Shown here one piece after another: positions 1-60,800 of a DNA stretch of 64,000 nt. The position numbers were made by a program, and so were the translations under genes. The stretch's first letter is position 1. The number at the start of each line of letters is the position of its first letter. The notes below the pieces were generated by a model. The model saw only the letters and a program-made list of their open reading frames with translations, was not told the DNA's origin and made no database searches. This stretch comes from Xestospongia bergquistia (Eukaryota > Porifera > Demospongiae > Haplosclerida > Petrosiidae), in NCBI GenBank assembly GCA_963965975.1, contig OZ014423.1:5978301-6042300 (forward strand). Direction: 5' to 3'.

Positions 1-882
1 TTCTGTTGACTGAAGAACAATTTGAGATGCATTAAAGGATTCAGCATTGATCGTCTCTGAGAAAGTGAAGTTGAGGAGACCGGTGTCCATGTCCAAAGAA
101 AATGAGGTAAGTGTTGGATTGGTAGTGTCAGCAATGACATCAGATACCTTAAATGCATCAGTATCTGTTACAGCTATCACTGGATTACCGAAAAAGTCAA
201 GAACAGCATTACCATTTAACACAACATATGTGTTATTTGGAGAGGACCCAAAGTTGTCTGTAGTCCGCAGGATATGCATATCATTAATTGTGAGTGAAAG
301 AGATAGAGTGTGACTATCTACAGAGGCTACTACTGAGCCTTGAGATAAAGTGAGAGTCTCTACAGTGAAATTGGAAATATTTGAAATGTTCATTATATTT
401 TGTAGAGTAATAAACCCAAAGTTCAAACTGTCAGCACTAACAGTATCATCAAATGTAAGATTGAGTTTATCATTCTTCAAGTCAAGGATTGCATCTGTGA
501 GTTGTGGATTAGCTGTATCAGGGATTAATTTTGTGACTTGACGTGCCTTACCATCAGTGATAGATCGGACATCATTGCCAAGATAGTCGTCAATATAATC
601 AGCTCTCATCAGGAGGTAAGTGTTAGATTTGTTCTTTGCAAGGCCTTCAATTGAATTGAGACCAAGCACATCCAAATCAGAAAGACGGATATCAACCACA
701 TGTCCGCTAGGACTAGTAGAGACACTATCAGATGATAGTGTGAAGATTTTCTCTTGATTAGCAGTCTTGCTGCTTTGAATGCGAAGGGAAGGTGAATTCT
801 GTGTTGAAACATTCACAACATCAGTGAAAGTGAGAAGAAGATGACCTGTGTTTAGGTCTAAAGTATATCCAGACAATTCTGT
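1..882 (-). repeat. Super-repeat 9 (partial, first domains)
   Basis: Start of a further block, cut by the window edge. It holds the signature domain (YIDDYLGNDVRSITDGKAR, marker at 551), one complete ordinary domain, and the N-terminal part of a third that stops inside its second strand (SQIVLQSTE at the left edge). The protein therefore continues beyond base 1. Confidence 0.85.
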
Positions 883-3800
883 TAAGACAACATCTGCAGT
901 TTCATCAAATGCAGTTAGCCTAAAGGCAGATAGAGCTTCAATGTTGTTGTTGGATGTATCAGAGAGACTGTCAGCTTCAATGGACAAATACGTGTTATTT
1001 AATTCAGTTCCAAAGTCATCGTCAAGCTTGATTGCAGCAATATCTGCAAGTGAAAGAATTATTGTAACCATGTCTGCACTCTGGACAGAAGTCTCAACAA
1101 TTTCCCCATCAGATATTGCTAGTACAGTTCCTGCAGCCATTGCTTCAGAGTGAATAGTGAATCCAGACAAATTGAAACTAGAGATGATAACTGGTTCATT
1201 GAATGTAAGACTGAGTTGATCATTAACAAGGTCAAGGGTGAATGCTCTCAATGTTGGAGGTGTTAAATCGGCAGTATAATTTTCTACAGGGATTGCTGAA
1301 TTTTCAGATATTTCTAGAGCAGTATTAGAATAGTAGGCAGTGTCCCTCACATAGCCATTTAGTGCTGAGATGAATGTGGTGTTGGAGTCTTTTGAGAAGT
1401 TGGTAAGTTTGAGGTTCTTGATGTCTTGGTTTGAAAGGGTTATTCTAACATCTTTCCTATCACCACTGAGTATATTACCACCAGTTAATGTGTATTTTTG
1501 ATCATTACTGGTCTCGTTTTCTGATGCCTGGATTGTCAAGTATGTCAGTAGAAGTGAATCAGATTCAATTGGTTCATTGAAGTGTAACACAAGCAAACCA
1601 ACATCCATATCAAGGTCAAAATTATTGAGAATTGGGCCAGTCAAATCATCTACTAGGTTACCAACAATGAATCCTGGAAATGCCATTTTAATCTTGACAA
1701 AGCTGTTGCCTGCATTGTCTTGCAAGAAACCAGAAGTGGCTGTAATGTAACAAGTTGATCGTGTTGTACACAGGAGATCATTTCTCTTAATAAAATTTAT
1801 GTCATCATCAGTTAGTTCAATGGACAGAACAGTTCCATCTGAACTAAGATCACTTTCACCTCCAGTTAGTGTGTAGTTCTGAAGAGGATTCTCAAAAAGA
1901 GTTTGAAGTGTGACTGTTGTAAGATGAAGGGAGGAAATGTTGATAGCTTCTGAGAAACTCAATTCAATTATACCAGTCTCCAGGTTAAGAGATGTGAAGG
2001 TTATGAGTTCTGGTGAGGTGGTGTCAGTAGTATAATTGGAAGCTCTGATTGAGTTAGCTGCAGGTATGGCAACTACAGGTAGACCTGCTGCATCTAGAAC
2101 TGTAGCATTAGTAATGGAGATATAACAATCATTTTGTTCTGTGCAAAGTGAAAGAAGTTTAATAGCATTTAGATCATCATCAGACAAAGTAATGGTCACT
2201 GTCACAATGTTGATCTCAATGGAAGAAGCATGAGTAAGATTGTAAGAAATGTTCTTGGCTGGGCTATCCAAAAGAACAATTTCATTGACATCAAGTGTTG
2301 AGATATTAACAAACTCATCAAATACTAAAGTCAAGATGCCTCTATTTGCATCAAATTGGAATGACACCAACATTGGATTGGCAATATCAACATCAATAGC
2401 TCCTACTTGCAAGCCATTGGATTGTGAAATGACTTCCAGTTGGTTGTTGCTGGTATCAGTGACTGTGTCACTGGAAACAGATATAAAGGTGTTGTCAAGT
2501 GCTGTGGCTAAGTTTCCAAAAGCACGGATAGCATTGATGTCTTCCTCACTGAGATTTAGTTTCAAAACAGCACCGTTAATTTCATTGAAATTAACATCTG
2601 TAAGTGTGACCAAAGCTGAAGGATTACTTGCATTATTCTGCAGTGTGATTCCACTAGGATTGAAAGATGAAGCAAGAATAGTTTCTGAGAAGGTAAGGGT
2701 CATTTGGGCATCATCAAGAACTAATGAAAAGTTCAATAGACGAGGTGCAGTTGTGTCTGGTATAAACTGTTTGATTTGTATACTTTCATTGACAGGTATA
2801 GCCTCTACTAAGTTCAAAGCTGTGTCAGTTACAATACCATCATCAATACTTATATAAGTACTGTTGATGTCAATAGCAAGTTGTGTGTTAGCCTTGATGG
2901 TATCTAGCTCAAACTTAGTAAGATTCACAATGATAATGTCAGGTTGTGTGCTTGATACACTAGCTTCGTTTGGAGTGAATGAAGATAAATTTGAAGAAAT
3001 AGTAAGGCCAGATACATTAAAAGAACCCAAGACAACTTCCTCTGAGAATGTGAGAATGAGAAGACCGTTATCAAGATCAAAGGATGTTCTTTCTAATGTT
3101 GGGCGGATTAAATCAGCAGTGTGATTAAGAACTGAAATTGTTGAACCAGAAGACTGGTAATCAATACCAGTTGCATCTTCAACTAGAGCATTGTCAGCAA
3201 ATATGAATGTAGTGTCATTAGTTTGACCTAAAGGAGCTAACTTTCGGATTTCTTCGACATCACTACTGATAATAGTGATCATGATATCAGTAGAAGCTAT
3301 AGATGTGTCTCGAACACTATTAATTAAAGAAAAGTTTGTCATTCCATCAGTTAAAGTCAACTTTGATAGATCGATTGTTGGATCAACTACCTCATTAAAG
3401 TGCAAAATAATGTACAGAGGAAGAGTATTGTCATCCATTTTGAAGTCAAAAGATGTCAACTGTGGAGGTGTTGTGTCAGGAGTTAGATCTCCAGTTTGTT
3501 TTGGTGCAGACCGAGATGTCTCATTTATGGAATTGCCACTGGTATCTATAAAAGCTCCATATTCAAATGATATAAATGTTGTTGCTTCAGAAAGACCAAG
3601 AATGTTATTAGCCTTAATGGCATTGAGATCTTTGTTATTCAATGTGACAGTGAAACTTCTGGTGTTTTGCAGTGGTACATTGCCGGTAGAAAGTTGCACA
3701 TAGTCTGGAGAGTCAGGTCCACTTATAAGTGTAATAGCACTATAAGTTATGTTTGAAACACTGATTGGTTCTTTAAAAGAGAGGAAGAGGGTACCTTCAT

Positions 3801-6800
3801 TAAGGTCAATGGTAAAATATTCTAAACTCGGTGAAGTAGTATCTAAAGTTACCAATTGAGCTTTAGTAGCTGATAGATTTGATATTTCTTTGACTGGATT
3901 TGTATTGAAGTCTGAGCCTAGTGCAGATGAAAATGATACAAAAGTGTCATTCACATCATTAGCTAATAACTCAGATACTTTAATGGCATCAAGGTCACCA
4001 GTAGAGAGAGAAATAGTGAGAATATTGCTAACAGAGTTAACAGCTGTGCTGTCTGTTAAAGTGACATTGGCAGTAGCCATGTTGATGTCATGTGTATTCT
4101 GTAAGGTGATGGTGTTTGTGTGAACTGTTGAAGTGTTCAGTGCTTCATCAAACGTCAAGAATAGCTGTCCATTATTGAGATCAAGAGAGAAGGCCATGAA
4201 TACAGGATCTGTAGAGTCTTGTATGACTTGTTCAGCAATAATTCCATTGACTGCCTCTATAGGTATATTGCTAGCATCTTCTATAGCACCCATTGTAACT
4301 GACAGCAATGTTGTATCTTTATCTTTGCCAAGAATCAAGGAGCTTTTCACAGAGTTTAGCTTGTTTGGAGATAATCTAATGACTAGTTCAGAAGATAATA
4401 TGTCATTTGTCAGTACTGAAGAGCCTTGAAGCATTACACTTTCGGTTGGTGATGGGTCATCAATGAGTGTAAAGCCAGACACACTTACTAAACCAATGTT
4501 GATCACTTCATTGAAAGTTATGTTTAAGTAGCCAGTGTTTAAATCTAGTATAAATGATAAGATATTTGGTGCATTGGTGTCGATAGTGTGGTCAGTTACA
4601 TTTAATGCAGAGGAATTGGAGATCCCTTGTAAAGGATTACCAACAGAATCATAAACTGCACCATCCAAAATAGAGAGGAAGGTACTATTTGCAGCACCAA
4701 ACTCTTTTAGTTCCTTTATGTAGTCAAGATCAGTTTGGAAAAGAGATACTGTTACAATGGCTGCTGTTGTATTTGGTTGTGGAATTCCACCAGACAGAAC
4801 GATATAATGACCAGCTTCTGAGATATTAGCAGCACTCTGTAATGTAATATCTGTGAAACGAAGTGTGCTTATATTAACAGCTTCTGAAAATTCAAGTACC
4901 AAAGTACCATCATTCAGATTTAAGTCAAAATTTGAAAGCTGAGGACTAGTTTCATCACCAGTAAATCTATTGACAAGTAATGTTTCCCCATTCACGTCGA
5001 GACCATCCAGGCCTCGGATAGCTAAAGGAGTGATCTTCAGATAGGTATTGTTTTTCTCTGTAGCTAGAGTATTGATGCCTCGAAGAATATTGAGATCTAC
5101 AGTGGTGATGTTGAATTGGATTACATCACTAATAGTTGTAAGTGATGGTCCAGTAGTAAGGACAACTGTTTGAGTTGGAAGTGTTTCGGCATTTTGGAAA
5201 TTTATCTCTGTATAATCTATAGTTGAAGCATCCATGATGTCATCAAAAGTGAGACTTAAAAGACCAGTGTCTAGGTCAAAGTTGAATTTAACAAATTTAG
5301 CTGGTGTTGTATCAGGTGGAATACTAAGAACTTGTTTTACTGTTGAATCATTATAGTTGTTGCCTGCAATATCAGTTATGGCTCCACTGTCTAATCGAAG
5401 GAATGTATTGCTTAATCCTGTTGCAATTGTTGTGTCACTTTTTACAGTTTGTAGATCATTGATTGTGAGAGTGATATAAATAGAGGTTTTATAAGTGGAG
5501 GGAACATATGATGGTATACCTGAGTTTAGTGTTATACCACTGATGCTGTCTGCTGATGGAAGAAGAGTAATATTAGGATAGACTATGTTGTCAATATCTA
5601 CTGGCTCAGAAAATGTTATTCTAAGGAGACCTAAGTTCAAATCGAATTCAGTAAACTCATTGAAGTCTGGAGTAGTAGTATCATTGATTACACTGCGTGC
5701 TTGTAGAGGGTTAATTCCATTGACTCGAGGTTGTGCAGTATTACCATTCAGATCACTTCCTCCAGCTCCAGTGTCTTCAGCAATGAGGCTAGTGTACACT
5801 ATGTAAGTGTTGTTGGTGTTAGTGGCAAAGTCATCTGTTGATTTTAAGATATTAATATCAGTTGTTGATAGAGGAATAGTCACTAGTGTATCATCCACTG
5901 TCTCATCAACAGAAGACAGTCTGTGAGTAGTGGTAGCATTGAAATTATCCTGGAAAGTGACAGCTGAAGAAGTTACTTTCTGTACTGGTTCATCAAATTC
6001 CAAATATAGAAGATTTGCATCCAGATCTAAATCAAAGGCAACAACTTGTGGTCCAGTAGCATCTGCCACAACTGTAACTGCTCTTGTTTTGAGATCAGGA
6101 AGAGGTGAGAAAGTTACCTGAATGACTTGATTTCCAGCTAAATCTAGAAGAGCCCCTTCATCAAATATAATATAGCAGCTGATTGTGGAGGAACAAATGG
6201 CTCGGTTTTTCTTGAATTCAATGAGATCAGCCTTATTGAAGGCAATGGTGATTCGTGGACCAACTGCTTCAGACACAGAGCCACCTGTTAATGTAATAGT
6301 TTCTGTACTTCCATGAACAAAGTCATAAAAATTGGTAAGGGTAATGTTGTCAAAATCAATTGAGTTAGATTGAACAGTTTTGGTGAAGCGTAAAGTCATT
6401 GTTCCTTCATCAAAATCAAAAATCAGGAACTGTTCTATTTCAGGAGGGTTGGGATCAATAACAATTTGATTAACTTGAACAGCTTCATTTCCAAAGTGAG
6501 AAACAATGGGGTTGTTGCTCATATCTCGAACAAAAGCTGTTGTGAAAGAAAGGTAGCAGGCAGAGTCATTCAGGCATAATTCAGCCTTGAAAAGTTTGAT
6601 GACATCTTCACCTGAAAGTGTGATGGATACAGTACTGGAATCAGCAGAAGGGAGAATTGCATCAGCTGAGATTGAGACACTTTGTGATGGACTTACTGAG
6701 GCAGCATTTTGAATAATAAGATCAGTTGGATCCATTGTAGACAAAACATCAACTGTTTCACTGAATATCAGAGTAACATTACCAGAGTCAATTTCTATGA

Positions 6801-9800
6801 GCCATTGTCTCAGAGTAGGTTGAGTTGTGTCTGCTGTAAAATTAGAAACATTGACTGCATTGGAAAGGGTCACAGGCTGAAGAGCATTACCAGCTACATC
6901 TTTAATACCAATAGACTCAACTATAAGGTAAGTATTAGTGTCATTGGTAGCCAGTTTTCTGTTTGCCTTTAATTGGTTTAAATCTGATGTTGTTAGTGTT
7001 ATAAATAAAACAGTGAAATTGTTAGATGCCAGTGGTGTGGCAGAAGATGAAATACGCAGCTCTTGTGATCCTGTTACGCTGTCAACAAAGGTAAAACCTG
7101 TTGCATTAGCTGTAACTACATCTATGATTTCATTGAAAGTTATTGATAGACGTCCAACATCAAGATCAAAGTCAAATCTTGTTAATGTTGGTCCCGTGGT
7201 GTCAGGAGTGAAGTCAGTGACCATCTCTCCAGGTGGAGTCAATGCAGAGATATCAACAGAGGTAATGTCTTGTACAGTCTCACTGGCAATGGATAAGTAT
7301 GTGTTGTTTTCATTAGTAGCTAGATCTAATGTATGTTTGATTGTATTGAGATCATTAATAGATAGTGTAATGTTGATGAGAGAAGAATCATTGATGGTTG
7401 TCACTTTTGAAGTGTCCAGAGTTACACGGGATCCAGATGCACCTTTAGCAGTGTATAATGTGAAGCCTTTAATGTTGACATTGTTTACTTTCACTGGCTC
7501 ATTGAACTGAAGGCTAATCAATCCAGAGTCGAGATCTAGAGAAAATGATCTCAAAACTGGTGGTGAGGTGTCTGAAATAACTTTGTCAGCTTTACGAGGT
7601 ACTGGTAAACCAGTGAAATTATTATTGGCAAAGTCTTTGAAAGCATCAGTTAAAATATCAATGAAAGTATCATTAACTGTATTGCCAAGATCTGGGTTCA
7701 GTTGTATAGCATCTATATCATCGATAGATAATTGAAGTATTATTTCTCTTGTGTCTTCTTCAAGGCTATAAATTGACTCTAAAGTGTGTGATATCTCACC
7801 TGTTGTATTGCTAAGCAAAGTAATGGCATTAAAGTTGAAATCTGAGACAGGAAGTATCTCAGAGAAGGTAAGTGAGAGTTGAAGTTGGCTTAAGTCTAAA
7901 GAAAAGCCTTCCAATGTAGGAGATGTAGAGTCTGAAATATAATCTCCAACTCTTAAAGCATTGTTGCTTTCAATCTCTACAATAGCATTTCCATTTGTGT
8001 CAGCAATAGCCATAGCAGCTATTGATATGAACGTGTTGTTTAAAGAAGTGGCTAGGTTTGTATTCCTTTTGATGTTGTCCAGATCAGAATTACTTAGGAG
8101 TATAATCAGTTCTGTACTACTGTTGAGAGCTAGTGGTGGTATTTTTAAAGTATATGCACTGGAAGGAGATTGACTGTTCTGAAGAGTGAAGCCTGAAATG
8201 TTCAAAGTTGATGTATCTACTACTTCTGAGAATGTGAGTAACAGTTCTCCTCTGTTCAAATCAAGTGTATAGTTTGTTAGTTGAGGTCTAGTGTCGTCTT
8301 CTATTACAAAAAAAGCTTTGAGAGCAAATGAATTATTGATAGGTACTAAAAGATTGCGATTCATATCTTGAACCAATTCAGCTGTGGCTGTAAGATAGGT
8401 GAATTCTTCTTCAGTTCCCAGACCATCAATTAATTGTATAGCATCAATGGTGCTATCTTGGAGCAGTAAAGACACAGATACAAGATCAATAATTAGTAAT
8501 TGAGAATTGCTACTGATGTTGACACTGTTTTCATTAGAGTTCATTGATTTCTGAAGAGCAAGTTGAGTCGCATCAAAACTTGTAATATTGACAGTCTCAG
8601 AGAATGTGAGATTCAGTAATCCAGTGTCAAGATCAAAATTGAAAGATATTAATTGAGGGCTTGTATCATCTTCAATAAATTCGTTAATTTGTGCTACAGT
8701 TACAGGAAAACCATTTCCAGCAAGATCTAAAATAATGTCTTCAGTGAGTGAAACAAAGCTAGTGTTCTTTGATGTAGCAAGATTTGATTTATTCTTGAGA
8801 GTGTTGAGATCACTGGGTAATAAGGAGATGGTTAAGTTGAGAGCATCACTAGATCTTACAGTTTTGCCACCAGTTAGAGTGAAACTAGCAGTAGCATTAG
8901 AAATATGACTTAAAATTTGCAAATCAGTAATTCTAAATGCTGTGTCATTAAGAATGTCTGTGAATGAAAGAAGTAAACTACCTTCATCCATGTCCAGCAC
9001 TGAGTAAACCAACTCAATACCTTCATCATCAGGTATATATTTAGTGACTTTGAGCGCATTACCATCAGTTACAGCTACGACATCAGTACCTGCATAGTCA
9101 TCAAAAGTATCTGCTCGAAGTGTGAGATAGGTATCATTTTCATTGGTAGCTAAGCCAAGAACCTCACTGATTCCAATGCGGTCAAAGATGGAAAGATTGA
9201 TTATCACATTTTGAGAGTCCTGGTCAACAACTGTGGAGTCATCTAAAGTGTATGTTAGTCCAAACACAGCTGTCATGGCACTCTGTACTGTTACTCCAGA
9301 GGGTCTGAATGTGCTGGCATCAATAACATCAGAGAACGTTATGTTAAGTTGACCAATATTCATGTCTAGATTGAATGATAGGGCTTTGGCTTGAACTTCA
9401 TCAGCAATAATAGCAGTTGCCATTGTAGAGTTTTCAATGATGTAGATATCATTCATGTCTGCAATAGTACCATTTTCCAGGAGCAAAAAGACATGAGATT
9501 TGAGATAGCCAGCATCAAAGTGGCCATTGGCATTTAGTTTCAATTCAGCAACATCTTCATCTGTGAGTTGTATAGTGATAGACAAAGTACCATCTTCTAG
9601 GTTTGGTGGTTTGATGGTACCATCTGTAAGAGCCACACCATGAGATGTTAAAGATGAATCATTGGCAATTGTGATTTTGGAGATGTTTAGAGTTGACACT
9701 TTTACTGGCTCGTTAAAAGTGATAATGATAGTGTCATCTTCGAGATTCAGAGTAAAAGAAGCAACTAATGGAGGTGAATTATCCTCTACATAGCTAGTGG

Positions 9801-12800
9801 CTTGCAGACCATTGCTGATACTAATGGAGTGAGTGGGATTAGGATAGAAGGCTTTGTCAAAGATGAGTCCACTTGTGACAGAGAGGTATGTGTCAGTTAT
9901 GTTAGTAGCAAATGATAATCTTTTCAATGAATTAGCATCCACTGTCAACAGGTTGATAACTATCTCTTTGCCACTTGGTGAGTTTGTGCTGCCACCAGTG
10001 AGAGTATAAGTGAGGTTAGATCCATTAGCATTGGCCACACCTTGGAGAGTGATAGCAGTCGCATCAAGAGTAGTAGCATCTACTGGTTCATCAAAGGTTA
10101 GTGTCAAAGTGTTAGTGTTGACATCTAGAGTAAAACCAGTAATGTTTGCTGCCATGTTGTCATCTATTAACTGAGACACAATATGTCCAGGTTCTGTATT
10201 GCTTAGCTGTGAGATGTTGTTTCCTTTAAAGTCAGATGCAAAACCTGAAGCAATTACAACATAACAATTGCCCCTGGTAGAGCAGAGGAAGGACATTTTC
10301 TTTATGTTCATTATATCGTTGTCAGTGATCGAAATTATCACAGTGCGATCAATCACAGTGATATCAAGTGAATTGGTGAGAGTGTAATTGGCCACTGGAT
10401 TTTCATATAGTGACTGTAGTGTAAGACCATTAACATTAATGGTGGTATTATCAATTGGTTCATTGAAGAGTAAAGTCATCTGTGCTGATATCAAGTCAAA
10501 CTCCACAAATTCAATTAATAATGGCTGTGTTTCATCATCTGTAAGAGAAGAGACCATTAAAGTGTCAGCTATGAGACTAACTCCAGCCATGTCCTTTACA
10601 GTAACACTTGAGAAGGATATAAAACAAGTGGAAGCGTTCTTACATAAACTGCTGGATTTTATAAAGTCTAAGTCACTATCTAAAAGTGTAATTTTTAGTG
10701 CTTCAGTATTATCATCATTGTAAATTCCTCCAGTCAAACTGCGAGAGGTGACATTGATTCCTAGACCATCTTGAATGACAATCTCTCCTGGTATAAAGGT
10801 GGAAATGTTGACTGTTTCATCAAATTTTAAAGTCAGCAATCCACTATCAATGTCTAAGTCAAATGATAGTAGTCTTGGTTCTGCTGTGTCATTTCCTACA
10901 GTATATGCTTGCTTTGGATTGAGAGGAGATATAGGTGATACTGGCCGACCATTTAGACCAGTAGCCATAAATGATGAAAAGGTAATGTATGTGTTTGAAA
11001 CTGTAGTTGCAAGGTTGTCTAGAGCTCTAATTCCATTGCTGTCTTCCTTTGATATGGTTAGCTTTACTATAATGGAATTAGTTGGTGATACGGTGGCATT
11101 AGTAAGAGTATAACTGATAGCATTTTTGCCAGGAGCATTTTGTAGTGTAAGATATGTAACATCAAATGTAGAAACATTGATACTCTTTGTGAAGGTAAGG
11201 GTGAGAATATCTGGGTTAAACTGAAATGTGAATTGAACAAGCTCTGGAGAATTTCTGTCAGAGAGAACATCTGTTGCCTGTTGAGCTTTGTTACTTGGAA
11301 CAGCAAGAGACTTGATGGATGAAATATCTCTTATGAAGCCTTTGTCCAAAGAGATAAAGGTGTTATTCACTGAAAATCCAATTCCAATTTCCAAGAGTTT
11401 GTTTTGAATCGTTTGATTGAGAAAGATCTTAACAGCATCAGTTGAATCACCAGATTCAGCTATACTGTCAAATGGGACTCTCAAGAAAGTAATATTTTGT
11501 TCTTCAGTGTTTTGTAGTATAGCTCTGCTAACTACAATTGTGTTGACATCCACAGCTTCACTGAACATAAGAATGATAGCACCCTCATCAAAATCTAGAA
11601 CAAAAGATTTTAGAGTTGGCTCAACATAATCTCCTGTTAAAGTGGACACTTTTACAAAATTTGTAGTTAAGATATCAAATCCACCTAAGTCTTCAAATGC
11701 TTCAGCTTCAATTTGTAAGAAAGTAGATTCCACTTCTTGTAAAACTGGCTTTAATAGCAGTAAACGTTCAATGTCTTTTTCAGCAATTGCAATAGTGACA
11801 TCAGGTGTACTTTCAGTGTTCACAACAAAGCTTGAAGAAGATAAAGTATAGTTCAGATTGCCTGTTGCATTAAAAAGTGTTATCAGAGAAATGTTTGTGG
11901 CATTGGAAGTAACTTTTACTGGTTCATCAAAGTGAAGTATGAGTTGAAATGAGTTATTACTGCTGCTGTCATAGATGAAATCCCATGTGTCCAGTTTAGG
12001 AAAAGAAGTGTCAGGTATGAATGATAGATCATTTGCTGATAAAGGAGATGGTTCAACTACAGAATTACCAGCTATGTCAGTCAAAGCATGAGACGTCACA
12101 GATAAAAAGCAATTAGCTGCATTTGAACAAATATTGTCATTGAGTTTAAGGGAGTTAAGATCATTTCTGGCAAACGATACAGTAACTATAGAACCATTAA
12201 ATGGTTGAACTTCCCCTCCAGTCAGTGTGATAAAATTCAGAGAGCCAATGTTGGAAAGGAAAGTGAATTGGGTGAAGTTAAAAGAATTTTTGTCAACCAC
12301 TTCATTAAATGTAAGGGTGAAAGTACCAGCATTCAAGTCAATATTAAATGTGGTGTCAAATCGAGGCATGGTTTCATCATTTATGACTCTGCTTGCACGT
12401 TTAGCATCATCAATGTTAATGCCTTTTAACTCATTGCCATCAGCATCATTAATAGAACCATTGGTTACAGATATGAAGGTATCAAAGATAGAGTTGCCAA
12501 GATCAGCTGCTAGTTTGATTTGATTGGCATCAGCTTCAGCCAATTCTAAGTCAACAATACGTCCAGTAGAATTAACAACAGTGCCATTTTTTAAAGTGAT
12601 GATAGTTGAAGCTGAAGAGTCCAAGTTGCTCTGAATTGTAAATCCTGTAGCTTTTATTGTATCAGGGTCAACTGTTTCTGAGAAAGTGAGTACCAGCTTT
12701 GGCAAACCATCCAAATCAAGAGTGAAAGCATCTAGTTCTGGTGGAGTTTCATCTGGGAAGTAGTTGCCAGCTTGAATGGCATCAGACAAAGCTGGAATTT

Positions 12801-48800: not shown

Positions 48801-51800
48801 CAATCTCAAAGTCAAGTAGTTCTGGTGGTGTAACATCTTCTATAAACTGTTGTGGTCGTGTGGACAAATCTGCATTAATAATAGAAGCAACATCAATCAC
48901 TGGTTCTATTGGATTACCAGCCATGTCATGAGCGAACCCAGATGGAAATCGAATCCAACAATCAAAGTTTTTAGGATCAGAGCAAAGTTGCTCAAAACCT
49001 TTTAAAGAGTTAAGATCCGAGGTATTAAAAGTGATGTTAAGAACATTGGTATGTTGAGAACCAGCTGCTCCTCCATTAAGACGAATCAATTGATCAGTTA
49101 AGTCAACATTAACACCATCTTGAATAATTATTTCTGTAAAGTTGACAGAACTAATGTTGAGGGTCTCTGTGAAATTGAGGACTATATATCCAGCATCTAA
49201 ATCTAAGATACTCCATTCTATCATCTCTGGGTCAGTAGTATCGGGTATGAAGTCAGATGCTAAAATCTTCTTGGCATCATCTGAGGCAATACTAACAACA
49301 CCATTACCATTTGTATCATTGAGAGTAGACATTGGAAAGGAAATATAACAGTTGTCTGCAGATGTACAGAGAGCAACTTTTTTGATTTCATTAAGATCTG
49401 ATACAGATAAAGTGATAGTCACATTAGAGACCTGTTCTGATGGAACTGTTGTTGTATCAAAATTGAATGAAATGGTATTCTCAAATCTTTTGCTCTGAAA
49501 TGTTATTTTAGATAAATCCATATTTGGTACATCGACTGTCTCATTAAATTGAAGAGTCAAAGTTCCAGCATCAAGGTCAAGGTAGAAACGCTCTAAATTT
49601 GGAGGATTATCATCACTCACAAATGATGTAACTCTTCTAGAATTGTTTGAAGGAATTTCAGTGATTTTGTTGCCAGAAGCATCAGTGATGGCAGATTCTA
49701 GAAGTTGAAGATAAGTTGTATTTTGACTAACAGCTAGACCATAAGTGGATTTAATTTTGTTAAGATCAGTGGCAGAAAGAATAATATCAATGATGTGAGG
49801 CTGTGATCGAACTATTGTACTGCCTACAGTGAGATTGAGAGACAAACGATCATCAGACACAGTCTGTGTACTGTGAAGAGTCATACTAGTAAGAGTCACA
49901 GATGCTGGGTTGACTGACTCTGAAAATGTTAAGCTCAATTTGCCAGTGTTCAGATCCAAGCTGTATTCATCTAATACAGGTGAAACCATGTCACCAATAA
50001 ATTTATTCACTGGAAATGGATTGGGATAAGCAATGGCCAATAAGGGGTTTCCAACTAAGTCTTCAATAGCATTATAATCAATGTAGATAAATGTATTATT
50101 TTTATTGGTGGCTAGATGGATCTTTTCTGAGATCTCATTGAAGTCAGTGAGACCCACTGTAATGTTAATGGTACTACCAGATGGAAAAGTAGCAACACTG
50201 TCAGTGGTGAGACGATAGAACTGAGACTGAACAGGAGGTAGTGAACTGTCATTAGTGAGGGTGATGAATATTGTTGAAAAATCATCAGTTCTAATCAATT
50301 CATTGAAGACCAGTTCAATCTCCTGTTGCCCCACATCCATATTGAATTCAAGTAGCTTGGGAGCAGCTGCATCTTTAACAAAGACAGAAACTTGAATACC
50401 AGAAGAGAACTCTGTGATATTGTTTCCAACAGCATCAGTAATAGCACCATTTTCAAAGAATAGGAAAGTGCTATCCATGTCTCTAGCAATTGATGAACTG
50501 TTCTTCAGTCTATTTAAATCATTAGTAGTGAATTTAATACTAATCTCTCTACCATTACCAGTCACTGGTGATGAAAGAGTTAGGCTAAAAGATTGTGTAG
50601 AGATTGCATTTGCATCACTGGCATTCAATACAGAAACAAGGGTTGGCTTAAAACTGGCCACACTGACTACTTCATTGAATGTAAGATTAAGAAAACCAGT
50701 GTCTAAGTCAAGTTGATAACTAACAAGTTGTGGTGGAGTGGTATCAGGAATGAACATCCCTACTTTAAGTGCTGATGATGATTCAATGGAATCAATAGCA
50801 TTGTTATTAGTATCCATAATAGTTGCTGAACTGAGTGAAATGTAGGTGTTATTGTCACTGGTACCTAAGCCATCAATGAGTTGTAATGAAGTAAGATCAG
50901 CTGCTGTTAAGTTCACAAGGACTTCAGTGACTAAACTATCACTTGTAACACCATTAGATAGATTGAGCTTCAGTGCATCAGCAATATCAGAATCACTTTG
51001 AAGTTGAAGTTGACTAAAGGTTAAAGTACTGACATCTACTGTCTCATTGAATGTCAATTTTAATGTACCATCATCCATATCAAGTGTAAAGTTAGTCAGT
51101 GAAGGTGAATTAGTATCAGAAACATATTCTGCAGCAGGTAAACCATTTTTGTCTGATATAAGAGTTACAGGGTTACCAACGACATCCTCTAATGCTGGGC
51201 CATGAATTGAAAGGAATGTTGTGTCCTTAGAAGTAGCAATATCTGACTCTGCCTTGATAGCATTGATATCAGTGTCAGATAACTGAATGGTCAGGGTACG
51301 TGAGAAAATAGTTGTAAGAGATTCTGTACCATCTGTTAAGTTGTAGACTGATCCTGAGAGAGTGCCTGAATCAGCCACACCTTGAATAGCAATATTTAAA
51401 GCATTAAATGTATTACCAGGAACAATCTCATCAACAGTTAAAATAATAGTACCAGTATTGAGGTCAAAGGTGAATCTAATGATATCTGGATTTGTGACAT
51501 CTGAAACAACATTTGTAGCTTGAAGATTAGTTACAACTGGGGCAGAATTTTGAGAAAGATCTTGAATGTAACCAGCTGAGATGGAAATAAACGTATCAGA
51601 TACATCAGTGCCAAGATTACTATTTGTGACAAGGTTATCCAAATCATTATTAGAAAGTTCTAGAACAACAGTGCTACCATCAATAAGTCGTTTAGGTGTA
51701 CCACCTGTAATAGCTAAGGTCTCTGAGCTCCCATTTGTAAGATTGATAGAAGTTGGAATAAATGAAGATAATAAAACAAGATCAGACATTTCTAAAGTCA

Positions 51801-54800
51801 GTGTGCCTTTGTTAAGATCAAGAGTGAACTCATTTAGATCCGGAGCATTTTCATCTGGAAAAAACTGACCAGGAAGAATAGCTTTCCCATTAGTAATAGC
51901 TAATACATCAACACCATATATATCGTCAATTCCAAATGCTTGTATTGTTAGGTAAGTATTGCTGAGTTGTGTGGCAACTTGCTGGTTGTCTCGCAATTTA
52001 AGACGATCTTGTAAACCGAGTGTAACATTAATAACATAGCCATTAGCACTGTTTGTTTTAGTAGAAGGTGAAAAGGTTACACTTTCATTAGTAATAGCAG
52101 TCTTATTTGACTGAATGGTTATTGACGAAGCATCAAATGTTTTAGCATTAACAACGTCATCAAAGGTCAAAAGTAAAATACCTGGTTCAATGTTGATGCT
52201 AAAGTTTGATAACTGAGGTCTAGTGGTGTCTGCAGAAAAACCATTAGCTTTCTGAGGACCAGTTTGATTGATTTTATTGCCAGATGCATCTAAAATACCA
52301 CCAGCATCAATCAGTATAAAAGTGTTGTTGACATTGGAAACGAATCCTTCTGTTAGCTTTATAGTTGCAAGATCATTGTCATGTATTTCCAGTGTAGCCA
52401 TAATTGATAAGTCAAGGGTTCCTTTAATCACCTTGCCTTCCATCAATGTGATATTTGTTGCAGGAGTTGATGAATCTGACAAGAGAGTAATAGCAGTGAA
52501 ATTAATGTCTGACAATTTAATAGGTTCATTGAAGAGAAGCTGAATTGTTCCATCATTAATATCAATCTCAAATTGACTAAGTACAGGATCAGTTGTATCA
52601 TCAATGACATCTGATGCCTGTAAACCTTCAGTTGAGTCTTTCCCAATCAACAAGTTAAGTGACATATCTTTTGCAGCACCAGTAGATATTGCTAAGAAAG
52701 TGTCATTAGTGTTAGTAGCAAAATCTCTTAACTTCAGCTGGTTGAGATCAGCACTTAATAGAGCTACTTTAACAATCCTAGCTCCATTTGCTGTAGTAGT
52801 GCTACCACCTGTGAATGTGTAAAAGTCATTAGCATCATTGACTGACTCTCTCTTCTGGATTGTAATACCAGTGTATACAATATCTGATGTACGCATTGGC
52901 TCTGAAAATGTGAGGGTGAGAAGACCAGAGTCAAGATCAAAGGTAAAGTCATCTAGGGTAGGGTCAGTTGTATCTGCAGTAAAGCTCATTGCGATGAGAC
53001 CAGGGAATGTTTCCTTTGTCATCTCGTTGGAGTTACCAAAGAGATCATTAATGGTGTTATTAAGAATTCGAATGTAGCAGTTACTAGATTTAGTGCAAAG
53101 CTGGCTTTTCTCCTGTATAGCAAATAAATCAGAAGCTGAGAGATTGAAAGTTACAGTGGTGAAGTCTACTTCAAACACATCCGCATCTGTAATGTTGTAT
53201 GAATCTTCTGCATTGGCATAAAGACTTTGAAGGATCAGACGAGATCCATCAAAAGTTTCTTTATTGACAGGCTCATCAAACTTAAGAGTGATTGTACCCT
53301 CAACAAGATCGAATAATGCAAATTGAACTGCTTTGGGTCCTGTAGTATCTGTAATAACTGTAGATACTTGTAATGGAGTTGGACTCTGTTGAGCAATGAT
53401 TTGAAAGCCTTCTGTATCCATTACTAAGGCTGTAGAGAAGCTAACATAGCAATCTGAAGAGTCATTACACAATGACTTTAACTTGATATTATTAAGATCA
53501 TCACTTGAGAGGTTAATAACAGCTTTGGAACTGGGGTTAGTGGAGGACAATGTGGAATCATCAAGTGTGTAGGTAATGTTAGGGCTAGCTCCAGTTTCTG
53601 ACACAAAGTTCAAATCAGTAATAGTAAATGTAGTAAGATCAACACTTTCAGAAAAACTGAGTGTTAGAATACCAGCATCGAGATCTAAAGAAGCAGACAT
53701 CATTTGAGGATTGTCAGTATCCATAAGAAATTTGGATGCTTGAATAGCCAATCGTGGTCGTATTTCAGAAACATAGTTATCAGACATGTCTTTGATAGCA
53801 TCAGATGTGATAGAGAGATAGGTGTTAGAACGTAATTCCATAATTCCATCTAGAGCTTGAATACTGTTTCTGTCCTCAACAGTCATGAAAAATTTGATGA
53901 CTTTTCCATTAGTACTGTTGACTGTTCCACCATTTAATGTAAATTCAACAGTAGGGAAAAGTGCTCTCATGTTCTGTAGCGTGAACTGACGTGGATCCAA
54001 AGTTTGTGCATTCACTATTTCATCAAATGTTAAAGTAAACAAGCTATCATTGACATTAAGCTCAAAACTAAGAAGCTTGGGACTGGTTGTATCAGCAATG
54101 AATGTAGAAGCATTAAGAGCACTTCCTGCAGCCAACTCTTCTGCACAATTGTTGGCAATATCACAGACAAGCAGAGCCTCATGATAAATGAAGGTATTGT
54201 TAGAAGTTGTGGCAAATTCCAAGTCTAGTTTCATGGTATCAATAGTTTTTGTACTTAAACTAACAACAATCACATTGGAAACTGTGCTGCTAGCTACAGC
54301 ATTACCGAGACGAATTTCATTGTCTGAAGATGTACCATTTAATAAGAACAGTTTAGAAGTATTGAATTTAGCAAGCTGGACATCCTCATCAAATGTGAGA
54401 ATAATTTGTCCAGCATCTAAATCAAAGGTGAAAGAGTCAATAACAGGTGGAGTAAGATCTGCATTATGTTTAGTCACTTGGAAGATGACTGCTTCTATTG
54501 GAGTATTTGATGTATCGTTGATGGCTCCAGCAGACACATTGAGATATGTTGAGTCTAAATTAACACCAAGACCTTCTGTGTTACGAATATCTTTAAGTAC
54601 TGACTCTTTGAGAGTAATAGTTATTGTTGTAGAAAGATCAGTTGAGTGACTTCCATTGAGAACCACAAATGATGGTGGAGAGCCATTATTACTTAGACTC
54701 AGCAACGATACAACTAATGTAGATGGATCAACAGTTTCATTGAATGTAAGAATAATGCGCATTGGTTCTTGAATAAGAACGACTTCAAAACCAACAATGC

Positions 54801-57800
54801 CGGGTGAAGTAGTATCTGGAATGAACTTGTCAGGACCAATAGCATTAGCATTAGAAATCCCCACCAAGAGATTTTCATTAAGATCTTCTGTTGAATTTTC
54901 CTTTATTGATAAAAAGACAGTCGTGTTAGAGACAGCAAGCAAAGTTGTGGCTTTGATTTTGTTCAGCTCCTGTTCCGAGAAAGTAATTGGCACAAGATCT
55001 TCAAGGCCAGTGACATCGACACTGCTGCCATCTAAAGTGATGTTGTCTGTTGGAAAACTTTTGCTAGCAAGTAGTGTAATGGATGATAAATCAAGGATGT
55101 CAGCATCAATACTTTCACTAAATGTCAAAGTCAGTTTGCCAAGATTCATATCAAGAGTGTAACCTATTAAAGTCGGTCGAATTGCATCACTTACAAACTT
55201 ATTTGCTTGCAGAGCTCTATCTATACTAATAGCTTTGATTCTGTTCCCAGATGTATCATTAACTGCTGATGAAAATAGTGCCACAAAAGTATTACCTCTT
55301 GCTGTAGCAAAACCAGCAGTTTCCTTGATTTTGTTAAGATCATCTGAAGAAATAGTGAAGTTAATTTCTGGGCCAATAGTAGTGGTGAAAGTTCCACCAG
55401 TGACATTCAAGCTGTGAACTGCAAAAGCTGTTGAGCTCTGCAAACTAAAACTAGTTGGAGAGAAAGTAGATGGATCAACAGTCTCTGAAAACCTTAGTAC
55501 TAACAAGCCAGTGGAGAGATAAAAGTCAAAAGATTGTAGTTCTGGAGGTGTAGTGTCTTTAATAAATGAGGTAGCATGAATGTTGTTGGTTGCATCTGCT
55601 GCATTGCCACTGTTGTCTGCAACAGCTCCATTATCAATGGAAAGGAAGGTGTTGTCTATTGATGTAGCTAAATCAAAGTCAGCTTTGATATCATTGAGAT
55701 CATCAAGAACAATCTTAAATTCAAAAATGTTACCAGATTCAGTAGAAGTAGTACCATTAGTAAACCTGAATTCCTTTGCATCTGGATCAGATGAACTTCT
55801 TAAACGAAAACGTTCAAATACCAAACTACTTGCATTGATAGATTCTGAAAATGTCAAAGTGATCAAACCTCTGTTAAGGTCAAAGACATAGTTCTCAATT
55901 CTAGGACCTACTTCATCAGATTCAAAACTAGATGCTTGTTGGGCATTGTCTTTAGAAATACCAATAACAGGATTGCCAGCCATATCTACTGTCAAAGTGT
56001 TTGGAAAGGAGATGTAACTGTTGTTAATGCTTGTACCAAGTTGTTCAAGATCTTTTATGTTATTCAAATCAGTCAAGAGTAGAGACAAAGTAACTACATT
56101 AGAAGGATCACCGCTAAGAGATCCATTCTTAGCCCCAGTCAAGGTATAATCATTATCTTCATCAGAAGACACATTACTCTGTAAAGTTATTTGATTTGAA
56201 TTAAACTTTAATGGATCTACAGCTTCTGAGAATGTAAGTCGAAGTTCTCCTTCCCCCAGGTCAAAGACAAAACGATCAAGTTTAGGATGAGTGGTATCAC
56301 CTGTGAATGTATCCACAACTCGAGCTTGTGTGACAGTACTACCAACAATTTCAACACCTGCAACATCAGTGATGGCATTCTGTTCAATTACAAGAAAGGT
56401 GTTGTTTTTTTCTGTGGCTAAGTTTCGTTTGGCTTTGATAGCATTTAGGTCAGTATCGCTGAGATTCAGAAATATATCATAACCATTTTCAACAGTGGCA
56501 GAACCTCCTGTAAGAGTGTATATCTGATAGAGGTTATCACCATCTACTCGTACTTTCTTGGATTGAATAGACAATCTTGTTGGATCAAAGGTGTCAGCTT
56601 TCATTATATCATTAAAAGAGAGATGGATTAGGCCCGAATCCACATCTAGTGAAAAGAATTCAATTTGTGCTCGAGTGACATCTTCTAAATAATCTGTAAC
56701 TCGATCAGCAACAGAGTTATTGAACCCAACCACAGGATTTCCAGAGACATCAGTTATGGCTCCATTATCAATGTAAAGAAAACTATCAGATTGTCTTGTG
56801 CCAAGACCAGTATCAAGTTTGAGATCCCTTAGTTCCGTATCACTAAAAGTGACTTCAATAACAACTTTGTCTGTGCCAATATATGCAACTGTACTATCAG
56901 TTAGGGTGAGGTTTGTACCTCCATCTACCCTAGATTGTAGATGGAACAAACTGCCATTAAATTCACCTTTGTCAACTGGTTCATTAAAAGAGACACGTAG
57001 GGTACCAGCATCTAGATTTAATTGTACAAAGTCAACAAACTGTGGACTAGTTTTATCTCCAGCTACAGCACTAGCTTTAAGGGCTTCGTCAATATCAATA
57101 GAAGAAACAGGGTTGCCTTGTATTCCTCCAATAATATTAGCAGAGCTATCTCGCACAAGGCTACTGGTGATGGTAAAGAAAGTGTTACTAGTATCGGTTC
57201 CAAGTCCATCCAAAGCTTTGATATCTATGAGATCATCATTACTAATCTGTACCTGTATTTTTGTTGATACAATCTCATTAGGAACATCCCCACTTACAAT
57301 TCTATGAGTCAAGGTACTATTAATACCACTTACTACAGTAATTTCTTTGGCATCAAGTTGTCGTCCATCAACTGGTTCATTAAAGGTCAGATTAAGTGTG
57401 CCACTGTCCAAATCTAATGTGACATCAATCAATTTTGGATTTGTAGTATCCTGTATAAATTCAACTGCTTGACCAGCATCAGGAGGATCAGAACCAGCAG
57501 GAAGGAGTGACAAATCTGTGATTTTGTTACCCAACATGTCCATTAGAAAATCTTCAGAAAATTGGACATGACAAAGAATGTCTCGAGTACAAAGAGAGGG
57601 ATCAGCTTTAATGGAATTGAGGTCAGCTGTATTGAGGATAAATGTGAGAGTATCAGAGTTTAGAGTGGTTTTAGTTCCACCAGTAAGGGTGACTGTGGCT
57701 GATAAAGAAGACTCAGAATAATAGTCAGAGAAGTTTAGCTGGGTAAGATTTACTGAAGATACTCGAATAGTTTCATTAAACTTTAAAGTAATTATTCCAC

Positions 57801-60800
57801 TGTCCAGATCAAATGTTGTTAGTTCAGTTAGTTTGGGAGGGTTAGTATCAGGAGTATAAGTATTTACCAGTTTTGAATTTGAATTGGACACACCTAAAAC
57901 CTGATTTCCTGAGGTATCATTGACAAGAGTTGATTCAAAGTTCAAGTAGCAGCTACTTTTCTCATTACATATCACCCTTCTTTTTATATCATTAAGCTCA
58001 TTGTTATCAAAAGTTATCTCCACATCCCTAAATGAATTTTCAGCAAATACTACCGTAACATTCTCAACTTCTAGAATTTGCACACCATTGATACCTGCTA
58101 TAGCAATCCTATTATTTGATAATGTTAGCTTTGTTTTGTCAAATGTATCAAGATTTATTGCTTCATTGAATCTAAGCGTTAAAAGTCCAGAATTGAGATT
58201 AAAATCAAATGTAGATAATTGAGGAGCTGTAGTATCCAGGACTAGGTCTTTAACTTTGACAGTAACATCAAGTGCATCATTACCTACTGTATCTTCAATA
58301 GCACCTGGAAATGTGTGAAGGAATGTGTCGTTCTTTTCAGTTGCAAGCTTAGCTATTTTAATAGCATCAACATCACCATTAGAGAGCTGTATGTCAAAGG
58401 AAACATCTGACTCAGAGGGGTAACTTCCAAAAGTAAGAGAGGTAGATTCAAATGGTGACGAGCTTGCATTTTGAAATGTCAGCAAGCCAAAGTTAAGTGT
58501 ATCTGGGTTTACAGTTTCACTAAATGTCACAGAGAGTATGCCACTATCAAGATCGAGGTTGAATGACTCTAGAGAAGGTCCAACTTCATCAGGAACAACT
58601 TTACCAGCTTGAAGAGCGTTAGTAGAAAAAATTGTTTTAACTGGAAAGTCAAAGAAATCTTGAACTGCTGTACTTCTAACAGAAAGATAAGTATTGGAGA
58701 TATCAGTTGCAAGTCCTGGCTTTTTCTTAATGTTATTTAGGTCACTAGCTCCAAAATCCAATTGGATTTCATAGCCAGAACCACCTGATACACTGCTTGC
58801 TGATGTGAGACGATATGTTTCTCCTCCAGAAGATGAACTTTGAAGAGTGAACGCACTCACAAGAACAGTTTCACTGTTCACTGATTCAGAAAAGGTAAGA
58901 ACTAAAGCATTAAGACCATAATCCAAGGTGTAGTTGAGAAGCTGAGGACGAGTTGTATCAGTTATAAAATTACCAATACCAAAGTCTGTGGTATTGATTG
59001 AATTGCCAGTTGTATCAAATGCAGAGTCATTGCTAAAGAAAAGAAATGTATTGTCTTTCTCTGTTGCAACATCAAGATCAAAAACCAACTTCTCCAAATC
59101 AGGTCTAGCAAGCACAATCTCGAAATCAGCTGCATCTCCACTGACAACTGAATTACTAAGGGCAATAGAGGAAGTAGCAGCAGAATGGTTGTTGGTATTC
59201 TCAATCAAGAACTTAGTCAGATTAAGAGTACTGGCATCAATAGTCTCAGAAAAGTTAAGAATAAGTTTGCCAGAGTTCATATCAACTGTATAGCTCAGAA
59301 GTCTAGGATCAGTATCATCACCGATGTACACAGCAACCTGCTTGCCAGATTCCATGTTCACTGATTGATTAGCCATGTCTTGTACCAAGTGACTAGAGAA
59401 AGTAATATAAGTATTTTCTCTTGAAGTAGCGAGGGTGCTGGCAGTTTTGATGTTGTTAAGATCTACAGTTTTCAGCTCCACTACAATAACAGAATTAGGA
59501 GAATTACTTGCTGAACCTCCTGTGAGTGGAAGTGATGTTATTGGAGACATAGTAGAATTTTGGATTGTAAGATTAGTAAAAATAAAGCTGTCAGGATTGA
59601 CTGGTTCATCAAAGGTTAGTGTGATTGTCCCATCATCCATGTCCAGAGTGTAGTTACTAAGCGTAGGGGATGTAGTATCAGAAATGACATTAGTAGCTAT
59701 CATACCCTCACTAACAAAGATGCCTTTATTGCTGTTATTAGATGTGTCAGTTATAAGTGAATCACTTGTACTTAAAAAGGTATTGGAAGACATAGTTCCT
59801 AGATCATTTTCAGATTTTATAGCATTAAGATCTTCATCTGACAATGTGACTTCTAAAGTAATGAAATCAATAAGTTTAGTGGATTTTTGGAGTGTAAGGC
59901 TAACAGAATCATCACGACTACTAGCATCTTGGACTCCTTGAATTGTAATGGCTGAGAGGTTGAGAGAAGATAGATCATAAGTTTCACTGAAAGTAAGAGT
60001 TAGAATACCATTGTTTAAATTTAAAGTGAAGCCAGTCACTTCAATACTTGTGTTGTCTGGAATGACTTCACTTGCTTTAAATGTTCCACCAGGAGTCAAA
60101 GAGTTGTTAAATAAATCCTTAATGGCACCTGCTGCAATGTTCAAGTAAGTGTTATTAATGTTTGTACCAAGAAGAGATGCATTCTTAATGAAGTTTAGAT
60201 TATCTGTGGTCAAAGTTAATGTAGTTGTTTTCCCATCATCAGAACGAGTACGTGTCCCTCCAGTAGGGTCAAGAGTGTCATCGGAGGAACCATTGTTGTG
60301 AAGAGTAAGGTCATTTATAACAAGTGAGGTATGGTCAATGAAATCAGTGAAGGTCATCAACAACTGACCCTCATCCATATCCAGACTAAATGTAGACAGT
60401 GTTGGAGGCTCATTATCAGTGATATAAATAGCTGCTTGAAGGGCTTTACCATCAGTGATTGCAATAACATCTATACCTTCAACATCATCAATAGCAAAAG
60501 CTTGCATAGTCAGCCAGCTAGTGTCAATACTCCTAGCAAGGCCACCTATTTTCTTAATCCCAAAGAAATCTTCATCACTGAACTGAACTGAGATATCATA
60601 GTCATTGTTACTATTGGTTGTGGAAGATTCTAAGGTGTAATGGAGATCACCTTCTTTCCTTTTTCTGTCTTGGATTCTGAAAGCACTTGACTCAAACATG
60701 GATGCATCCATAACATCATCAAAGGTTAAATTCAAGACCCCCTTGTTCATATCCAATGTGTAGTTTCTCAGTAGTGGTCGACTGCCATCTGGAACAAATG

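What the first reader, a model, noticed from the sequence alone, without database searches (positions are those of the whole stretch)
551..60460. Exact 23-domain higher-order repeat, about 8.56 kb, seven full copies
The marker domain (DDxxGxDVLAITDGKA) occurs at 551, 9062, 17606, 26186, 34760, 43289, 51887 and 60449. Intervals are 8511, 8544, 8580, 8574, 8529, 8598 and 8562 bp, all divisible by three. By counting core strand motifs I find exactly 23 domains in each interval. This is a titin-like super-repeat organisation and implies that a 23-domain block was amplified as a unit, possibly giving a regular filament period. If each domain is about 4 nm long (typical of Ig domains), a block would span roughly 90 nm.
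Basis: partly seen in the sequence, partly recalled or inferred. Interest (0 to 1): 0.95.

Follow-up and report, generated by a model that had tools for sequence, protein, structure and literature searches.

The report
Giant sponge protein with 23-domain super-repeat
A sponge gene with one unbroken coding exon of about 125,000 bases encodes what reads as a secreted protein longer than titin, built of 14 blocks of exactly 23 Ig-like domains; other sponges keep this layout domain by domain and a choanoflagellate has its own 23-domain repeat, so it is probably an extracellular cable with regularly spaced contact points.

Summary
The window lies inside one minus-strand exon of 124,634 bases in a 146-Mb sponge genome. 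The spliced gene (A) reads as a signal peptide plus 335 Ig-like domains, 41,558 residues. Domains 0-321 are exactly 14 blocks of 23; a 12.5-domain tail is aperiodic. Period 23 is classified at 10.4 times chance, the next-best period at 1.3. Each block is 12+11 domains, each part starting with a doublet of Cys-pair domains. A divergent neighbour (B, 16,020 codons) has period 18; paralogue C has none, an internal control. Homologue fragments tile A in register; 11 of 11 that reach its end stop in the same half-domain, and 5 of 5 that reach B's start begin with the complementary half. Sponges of two classes are covered, and Salpingoeca rosetta PTSG_06209 has its own 23-domain repeat (offset-23 identity 0.507). 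Best explanation: a secreted, micrometre-long cable with binding sites at fixed spacing, possibly extended A-to-B through a split domain. Favoured identity: the flagellar-vane filament of choanocytes and choanoflagellates. That step is inferred, and two published observations count against it.

The parts
1..63999 (-). Part of the single 124,634-base coding exon of gene A (exon C13:5920434-6045067; window-relative -57866 to 66767). The window holds A domains 8-178 whole (171 domains).
   Evidence: stop-free frame; exon limits; domain calls; window domains
58243..64000 (-). Block 0 (domains 0-22), C-terminal part; continues outside the window to the exon's start at about 66767
49621..58242 (-). 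Block 1 (domains 23-45)
41026..49620 (-). Block 2 (domains 46-68)
32500..41025 (-). Block 3 (domains 69-91)
23959..32499 (-). Block 4 (domains 92-114)
15373..23958 (-). Block 5 (domains 115-137); its domains 127-131 (window 17581-19434) were folded by AlphaFold2, pLDDT 94.2, pTM 0.80
6838..15372 (-). Block 6 (domains 138-160)
1..6837 (-). Block 7 (domains 161-183), N-terminal part; continues outside the window
60424..60795 (-). Marker domain (class 16) of block 0. The others in the window: 51862-52236, 43264-43632, 34735-35109, 26161-26538, 17581-17955, 9037-9408, 526-900. Most conserved class both within the gene and between species.
61552..62289 (-). Cys-pair doublet, classes 12-13, block 0. 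Others of this type: 52981-53727, 44392-45123, 35851-36576, 27280-28017, 18694-19434, 10168-10896, 1654-2394.
   Evidence: Cys barcode; coordinates
57457..58242 (-). Cys-pair doublet, classes 0-1, block 1. Others of this type: 48844-49620, 40270-41025, 31759-32499, 23197-23958, 14617-15372, 6070-6837.

Best explanation
Gene A encodes a secreted giant cable protein of sponges. SHOWN by sequence: one 124.6-kb coding exon after a short exon that reads as a signal peptide; 335 Ig-like domains; 14 exact 23-domain blocks, each of two half-blocks (12 and 11 domains); each half-block starts with two Cys-pair domains and has a marked domain four positions later; and individual domain identity conserved between sponges from end to end. 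INFERRED: the chain is an extended rod of about 1.3-1.5 micrometres (about 4 nm per domain). The marked five-domain module recurs every 44-48 nm, or about 92 nm for the strongest mark, and binds a partner or a neighbouring chain, so the domain count acts as a ruler that sets the spacing of lateral contacts. A ends in the first half of a domain and B begins with the second half, so A and B probably dock through a shared split domain, giving one chain of about 461 domains. Most likely identity: the filament of the flagellar vane, the regular extracellular mesh on flagella of sponge choanocytes and choanoflagellates. My rough odds: secreted extracellular cable 0.85; period used to space contacts 0.6; A-B split-domain joint 0.45; vane 0.3.
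For: Unbroken frame of 41,554 codons without N; spliced reading of 41,558 residues, 4.50 MDa, beginning MILIVLLATSLSTI with a phase-1 intron, or an in-frame longer start (no signal-peptide predictor was run). Period 23 and its multiples only. Two or more Cys at classes 0, 1, 12, 13 in all 14 blocks, and in only 10 of the 266 other domains of these blocks any Cys. Class explains 31% of length variance, shuffle maximum 17%. Paralogue C shows no period. Homologues: best A/B/C diagonal unique (best/next over 1.5) for 164 of 201, of which 56 tile A from domain 0 to 334. 11 of 11 that reach A's end stop in the same half-domain; 5 of 5 that reach B's start begin with the other half; on average these halves are as conserved as whole domains. 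Class 16 is the most conserved class between species. S. rosetta PTSG_06209: register score z 9.1 (7.5 without Cys) and own offset-23 identity 0.507. Secretion fits NxS/T sequons, 1007 against 749 expected (reversed motif 812), and paralogue D with growth-factor-receptor Cys-rich repeats, a TM helix and a short tail (read). Vane filaments are about 3.5 nm wide, over a micrometre long, form meshes with nodes, and are of unknown composition (PMC9671500 sections 8 and 12).
Against: No localisation, expression or binding data. Conserved order alone could persist passively once blocks became too different to recombine. Proteinase K did not remove the S. rosetta vane, which its authors read as support for a carbohydrate or glycoprotein (PMC9671500 section 12). 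A vane was not seen in Ephydatia muelleri (PMC11962469, passage), although this species has A fragments (P0043, P0111, P0086, P0115). Mesh spacing is not given in the text I read, so period and mesh could not be compared. The half-domain joint was not modelled, and the half-domain is less conserved than the rest of the fragment in 4 of 11 (A) and 1 of 5 (B) homologues. S. rosetta's gene model is only 37 domains long, starts differently and has no unique match to one stretch of A.
Confidence: 0.6

Rival explanations
1. The 23-domain register has no present function. An ancestral block was amplified early; the blocks then diverged too far for unequal crossing-over, so count and order were frozen. 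The protein is just a long sticky extracellular chain.
For: Block identity is low (0.290-0.345) and does not fall with distance (Spearman -0.11, p 0.29), as expected for an old, frozen, star-like amplification. C has no period and its domain order is conserved too (85 homologues).
Against: Class 16 stands out in between-species conservation (+0.094). The Cys doublets at 12/11 spacing persist in all 14 blocks and can be seen in many of the 45 best-scoring homologues printed. S. rosetta made a younger duplication of exactly 23 domains.
Confidence: 0.25
2. It is a secreted matrix, cuticle or cell-adhesion cable of sponges (in the role of the aggregation factor or mesohyl matrix), not a flagellar structure.
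For: Signal-peptide-like start and no 19-residue window with mean hydropathy above 1.89 in A; sequons; relatives on the same contig carry TIG domains or growth-factor-receptor Cys-rich repeats and a TM anchor (read), typical of surface and matrix proteins.
Against: A homologue exists in S. rosetta, an organism without mesohyl (general knowledge). The Pfam scans of window segments list no other matrix or adhesion domain; the rest of A was not scanned with Pfam.
Confidence: 0.3
3. It is part of the glycocalyx mesh or reticulum between collar microvilli.
For: Same cell type and phyletic range. PMC7755389 passages describe a fine collar mesh and a gasket as further extracellular parts of choanocytes, with 0.05 micrometre between microvilli in the model, near one half-block.
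Against: Only a coincidence of lengths; no data.
Confidence: 0.15
4. It is a titin-type intracellular elastic or ruler protein.
Confidence: 0.02

Closest known systems
Titin (connectin) A-band super-repeats
   Same: Long chain of beta-sandwich domains with a higher-order repeat of fixed domain number (11 repeats of 11 and 6 of 7 in titin; PMC7427331 passages), non-repeating ends, position-specific conserved domains.
   Different: Different domain family, reads as secreted, one exon of 124.6 kb (titin's largest exon 17,106 bp, 38,138 aa with all exons; PMC12198301 passage), period 23 built of 12+11, a half-domain at A's end and at B's start.
Big_5 (PF13205) / SbsA-SbsB-SbsC type Ig-like domains of bacterial S-layer and surface proteins
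   Different: Eukaryotic; arrays of hundreds of domains in a fixed super-repeat; 40 of 60 segments do not reach E 0.01.
GhpA grappling-hook protein of Aureispira
   Same: First Foldseek match of the five-domain model (E 9e-12); Ig-like domain chain of a bacterial protein.
   Different: Bacterial, 13% identity, TM-scores 0.13/0.11; similarity is of domain fold only.
Flagellar vane of choanoflagellates and sponge choanocytes (structure of unknown composition)
   Same: Extracellular, filament width of about one Ig chain (3.5 nm), over a micrometre, nodes, same two lineages (PMC9671500, sections 8 and 12 read).
   Different: No protein is assigned to it in the text read; membership is a proposal.

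Membership tests
Titin/connectin family | Ig (I-set) and FN3 domains | tested here: not met
   60 window segments against Pfam: the 12 families matched do not include I-set or FN3; one segment matched the phage family Ig_GpJ_C at E 0.0055
Titin/connectin family | Cytoplasmic, no signal peptide; sarcomeric | tested here: not met
   signal-peptide-like exon joined in frame, read by eye and hydropathy; localisation itself not testable
Titin/connectin family | Super-repeat of fixed domain number | tested here: met
   period 23, 10.4 times chance; likeness of organisation, not membership
Big_5 / SbsA-type Ig-like domain (PF13205) | Match to the Pfam profile above its cut-off | tested here: met
   29.2 bits against cut-off 23.6 in one 1179-aa segment; 20 of 60 segments at E up to 0.01, so weak for most domains
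Big_5 / SbsA-type Ig-like domain (PF13205) | Ig-like fold of the S-layer type | tested here: met
Flagellar vane component | Present in choanoflagellates and sponges | tested here: met
   named proteins of S. rosetta, Amphimedon, Ephydatia, Dysidea, Corticium; absence from other animals was not tested, and most hits are unnamed
Flagellar vane component | Present wherever a vane exists and lost with it | tested here: inconclusive
   E. muelleri has A and B fragments, but a vane was not seen there
Flagellar vane component | Located on vane filaments | not testable with these tools
   needs labelling or proteomics
Split-domain (half-domain) docking pair | Complementary half-domains at A C-terminus and B N-terminus, conserved | tested here: met
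   11 of 11 and 5 of 5 homologues that reach these ends; mean conservation equal to whole domains, lower in 4 of 11 and 1 of 5
Split-domain (half-domain) docking pair | The two halves bind and fold together | not testable with these tools
   no two-chain prediction on hand; sequences outside the window are restricted for folding

The most novel reading that the evidence does not exclude
A and B are the long-sought filament of the flagellar vane: a protein longer than titin, joined A-to-B by a domain split between two genes, in which a count of 23 (12+11) domains, already used by the common ancestor of choanoflagellates and sponges, sets the mesh of the vane and the total count of about 461 domains sets its width.
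Probability: 0.25. Interest if true: 0.97.

Novelty: new variant of a known kind. Interest (0 to 1): 0.92.

Why it matters
A protein of 41,558 residues with a 124.6-kb exon exceeds titin (38,138 residues with all exons, largest exon 17.1 kb; PMC12198301, passage). It may have been missed because annotation cuts it up: in Ephydatia muelleri at least four gene models (G018687, G018693, G018694, G018699) are pieces of A, and G018700 and G018704 are pieces of B. Keeping 335 positions in register across sponges, with 23-domain blocks also in a choanoflagellate, is an extreme case of a conserved domain count. If it is the vane filament, it answers what that structure is made of and makes its role in sponge pumping testable in S. 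rosetta.

Tried and rejected
Organism: an 18S search in the own genome gave no answer three times. I relied on orthologues instead: B is 63% identical to Amphimedon P0007, 47% to Dysidea P0154 and P0131, 42% to Ephydatia P0072 and 40% to Corticium P0160, over different stretches, so a demosponge nearer Amphimedon than the others. The species was not established.

C as a periodic protein: rejected, best offset z 1.9. C's domain calls include a few split domains (spacings of 63-70), so small shifts on C diagonals were not interpreted.

S. rosetta half-domain end: PTSG_06209 also ends in a half-domain, but its relative P0202 departs just there, in a way that looks like intron read-through, so I do not count it.

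DIP2 as the gene downstream of A: my reading of two exons was not confirmed. The DMAP_binding search matched only contig C12.

A prokaryote scan with the domain alignment was not possible (alignment not conserved enough) and was left. A search of PDB sequences gave one match, at chance level (E 0.25). VIA-align rows below the S-layer proteins are at Z levels that its note calls common and were used only as stated for titin.

EukProt P0127 (register z 22.0, 20.0; own offset-23 identity 0.322 against a mean of 0.274) carries no species name; from the style of its name I suspect a choanoflagellate, which is recall and not a result.

Literature: 10 searches. None of the listed titles or abstract starts concerns this gene family; the lists were capped, only open-licence PMC papers are held, and no preprints. 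PTSG_06209 gave 0 papers. PKZILLA-1 (45,212 aa, an algal protein, recalled) is larger, so the size comparison is with titin only; I did not survey other animal proteins.

A slip in my notebook: entry 11 says 13 fragments end at A's last domain; the count is 11.
Full report
WHAT IS THERE. The window is G000:C13:5978301-6042300 of a 146.5-Mb genome in 21 contigs. Its dominant open frame is on the minus strand and runs through the whole window; the other ORFs listed are at most 202 codons. With 100 kb fetched on each side, the stop-to-stop frame is C13:5920437-6045098: 41,554 codons, no stop, no N. Upstream is a small exon reading MILIVLLATSLSTI and a phase-1 intron of 223 bases; spliced, the protein is 41,558 residues and 4.50 MDa. 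A further in-frame exon would add MMGDQQRLHRNS (41,570 residues). The main exon is 124,634 bases. The signal peptide is my reading; no predictor was run. I call this gene A. Head to head with it, on the plus strand, lies B: a frame of 16,020 codons with its own signal-peptide-like start. On the same contig a third gene, C (13,759- and 2,361-codon frames; 16,076 codons from the frame start after removing a 64-base intron), ends in three TIG domains. A fourth, D, carries growth-factor-receptor Cys-rich repeats and, as read, a transmembrane helix with a short tail. In a whole-genome search with one domain, 150 of 539 candidates were scored and all 150 are on C13.

THE SUPER-REPEAT. A domain HMM built from the frame itself gives 335 contiguous domains in A and 127 in B. 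In A, mean pairwise identity is 0.285 overall, 0.287 between neighbours, 0.323 at offset 23, 0.306-0.318 at the multiples from 46 to 276 and 0.300 at 299; the other offsets from 1 to 50 lie at 0.276-0.292. In leave-one-block-out classification, period 23 reaches 45% correct class, 10.4 times chance. The next of 36 periods tried (5-40) reaches 1.26 times. Blocks 0-13 fit at shift 0; the last 12 domains tested do not. So domains 0-321, exactly 14 x 23, are periodic, and a tail of 12.5 domains is not. Domain length follows the class too: 31% of variance, shuffle maximum 17%. Cysteines make the pattern visible to the eye: classes 0, 1, 12 and 13 carry two Cys in every one of 14 blocks (six in domain 1, four in domain 69), while 10 of the 266 other domains of these blocks have any. 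Thus 23 = 12 + 11. That the pairs are disulfides is inferred. Classes 0/12, 1/13, 3/15 and 4/16 resemble each other (for 0, 1, 12, 13 partly because of the Cys), and the run A11-16 resembles B5-10.

CONTROLS. B has a different period, 18: 5.1 times chance; blocks 1-5 in register, ends not; Cys doublets every 18 domains in these five blocks. In B the marked class again lies four domains after the first Cys domain. C, a protein of the same family and of B's size, has no period (best z 1.9). Shuffling class labels in the window never came near the observed value. So the period is a property of the gene and not of the domain family.

RELATIVES. Three searches of a protein database (309 hits, 120 listed; 81; 79, 12 of them new) returned named proteins of Amphimedon queenslandica, Ephydatia muelleri, Dysidea avara, Corticium candelabrum and the choanoflagellate Salpingoeca rosetta; most others are unnamed. 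With class profiles from A, 72 of 203 proteins (201 homologues, B and C) score z over 5 for the 23-register against shuffled domain order; B scores 0.7 and C -0.1. The set was chosen by likeness to A, and A's orthologues share the register by descent, so this describes relatives and is not a rate.

DOMAIN-BY-DOMAIN ORTHOLOGY. For 164 of 201 homologues one diagonal against A, B or C stands out (best over next above 1.5): 56 to A, 23 to B, 85 to C. The 56 tile A from domain 0 to 334. P0121 matches A 0-60 at 43% identity, while the same register three blocks away gives 32%. Corticium P0130 matches A 284-334. The Ephydatia gene models G018699, G018694, G018693 and G018687 match A 2-27, 88-115, 122-152 and 246-271; G018700 and G018704 match B 0-30 and 75-118. 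Their numbering suggests that the head-to-head pair is kept there and that annotation has cut both genes into pieces. The remaining 37 of 201 have no unique diagonal; some of these (for example P0145 and P0150, and P0205 of the later search, all with one contig length) still have the 23-register, so some lineages may have a different block history.

CHOANOFLAGELLATE. S. rosetta PTSG_06209 (5,584 residues, 37 domains) fits A's register with z 9.1, 7.5 with Cys ignored. Its own domains 23 apart are 51% identical over 14 pairs, against 25-29% at the six other offsets tried. P0202, 55% identical to it, shows the same register. Neither has a clear single diagonal to A. So the 23-domain block is older than sponges, unless it was moved between lineages, while one-to-one orthology of blocks is shown for sponges only.

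THE SPLIT DOMAIN. A ends in the first half of a domain (model columns 2-54). B begins, right after its signal-peptide-like start, with the second half (columns 61-120). All 11 homologues that reach A's last domain end in the same way, and all 5 that reach B's first domain begin in the same way (the Ephydatia model P0072 has a longer leader). None of the 79 fragments placed on A or B runs past an end. Mean conservation of the halves relative to the rest of each fragment is +0.026 (A; lower in 4 of 11) and +0.017 (B; lower in 1 of 5). Leftover fragments would be expected to decay, so I infer that the halves complete each other in trans. All 12 homologues reaching B's end keep a Cys-Arg near the last residue.

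HOW IT MAY WORK. At titin's 3.98 nm per domain (PMC7427331, passages), A would be about 1.3 micrometres long, a block 92 nm, half-blocks 48 and 44 nm. In titin the 11-domain super-repeat matches the 43-44 nm order of its partners (same passages). By analogy I propose that the five-domain module at the start of each half-block binds a partner at fixed steps. The best candidate structure known to me is the flagellar vane. In S. rosetta it is a bilayer mesh of 3.5-nm filaments that reaches beyond tomograms 1.2 micrometres wide, branches first about 80 nm from the membrane, has nodes with semi-regular spacing, and is of unknown composition (PMC9671500, sections 8 and 12 read, passages elsewhere). 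A calcareous-sponge model uses vane widths of 0.7-1.4 micrometres and collars 2.5 micrometres across (PMC7755389, passages); another paper cites vanes at most half the collar's diameter (PMC11962469, passage). Against it: proteinase K left the S. rosetta vane in place, and a vane was not seen in E. muelleri. Mesh size was not in the text I read. This last step is a proposal.

VERDICT. The finding is a new giant protein of sponges, most likely extracellular, with a conserved 23-domain period, a different period in its neighbour, and complementary half-domains at A's end and B's start. Membership in the titin family was tested and not met; likeness of organisation stands.

Noticed in passing
C13:6046214-6094273, + strand (outside the window; L001-L006): Divergent gene B, 16,020 codons, 127 domains with an 18-domain super-repeat and Cys doublets every 18 domains in five blocks; starts with half a domain after its signal-peptide-like start.
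   Followed up: yes
C13:5680927-5729218, - strand (L021-L023, L025-L027): Gene C, about 16,076 codons in two large exons with a 64-base intron, same domain family without super-repeat, ending in three TIG domains.
   Followed up: partly
C13:5803990-5808298, - strand (L024): Gene D, membrane-anchored relative: domain array, growth-factor-receptor Cys-rich repeats, one TM helix, short tail. Upstream part not fetched.
   Followed up: partly
P0015, P0145, P0150, P0205 (all listed with a 447,472-base contig): Homologues with the 23-register but no unique match to any A block; possibly a lineage whose blocks were re-amplified.
   Followed up: no
P0200 (S. rosetta PTSG_06209): Domains 23 apart are 51% identical over 14 pairs, a younger 23-domain duplication; the N-terminal part, several hundred residues, is of another type.
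   Followed up: partly
B C-terminus, C13 about 6094200-6094276: Conserved Cys-Arg near the last residue in B and in 12 of 12 homologues that reach it; an unpaired Cys could link chains.
   Followed up: no
C13:6094695-6095096, + strand: PRELI-family gene directly downstream of B; the gene downstream of A reads like DIP2 but this was not confirmed.
   Followed up: partly
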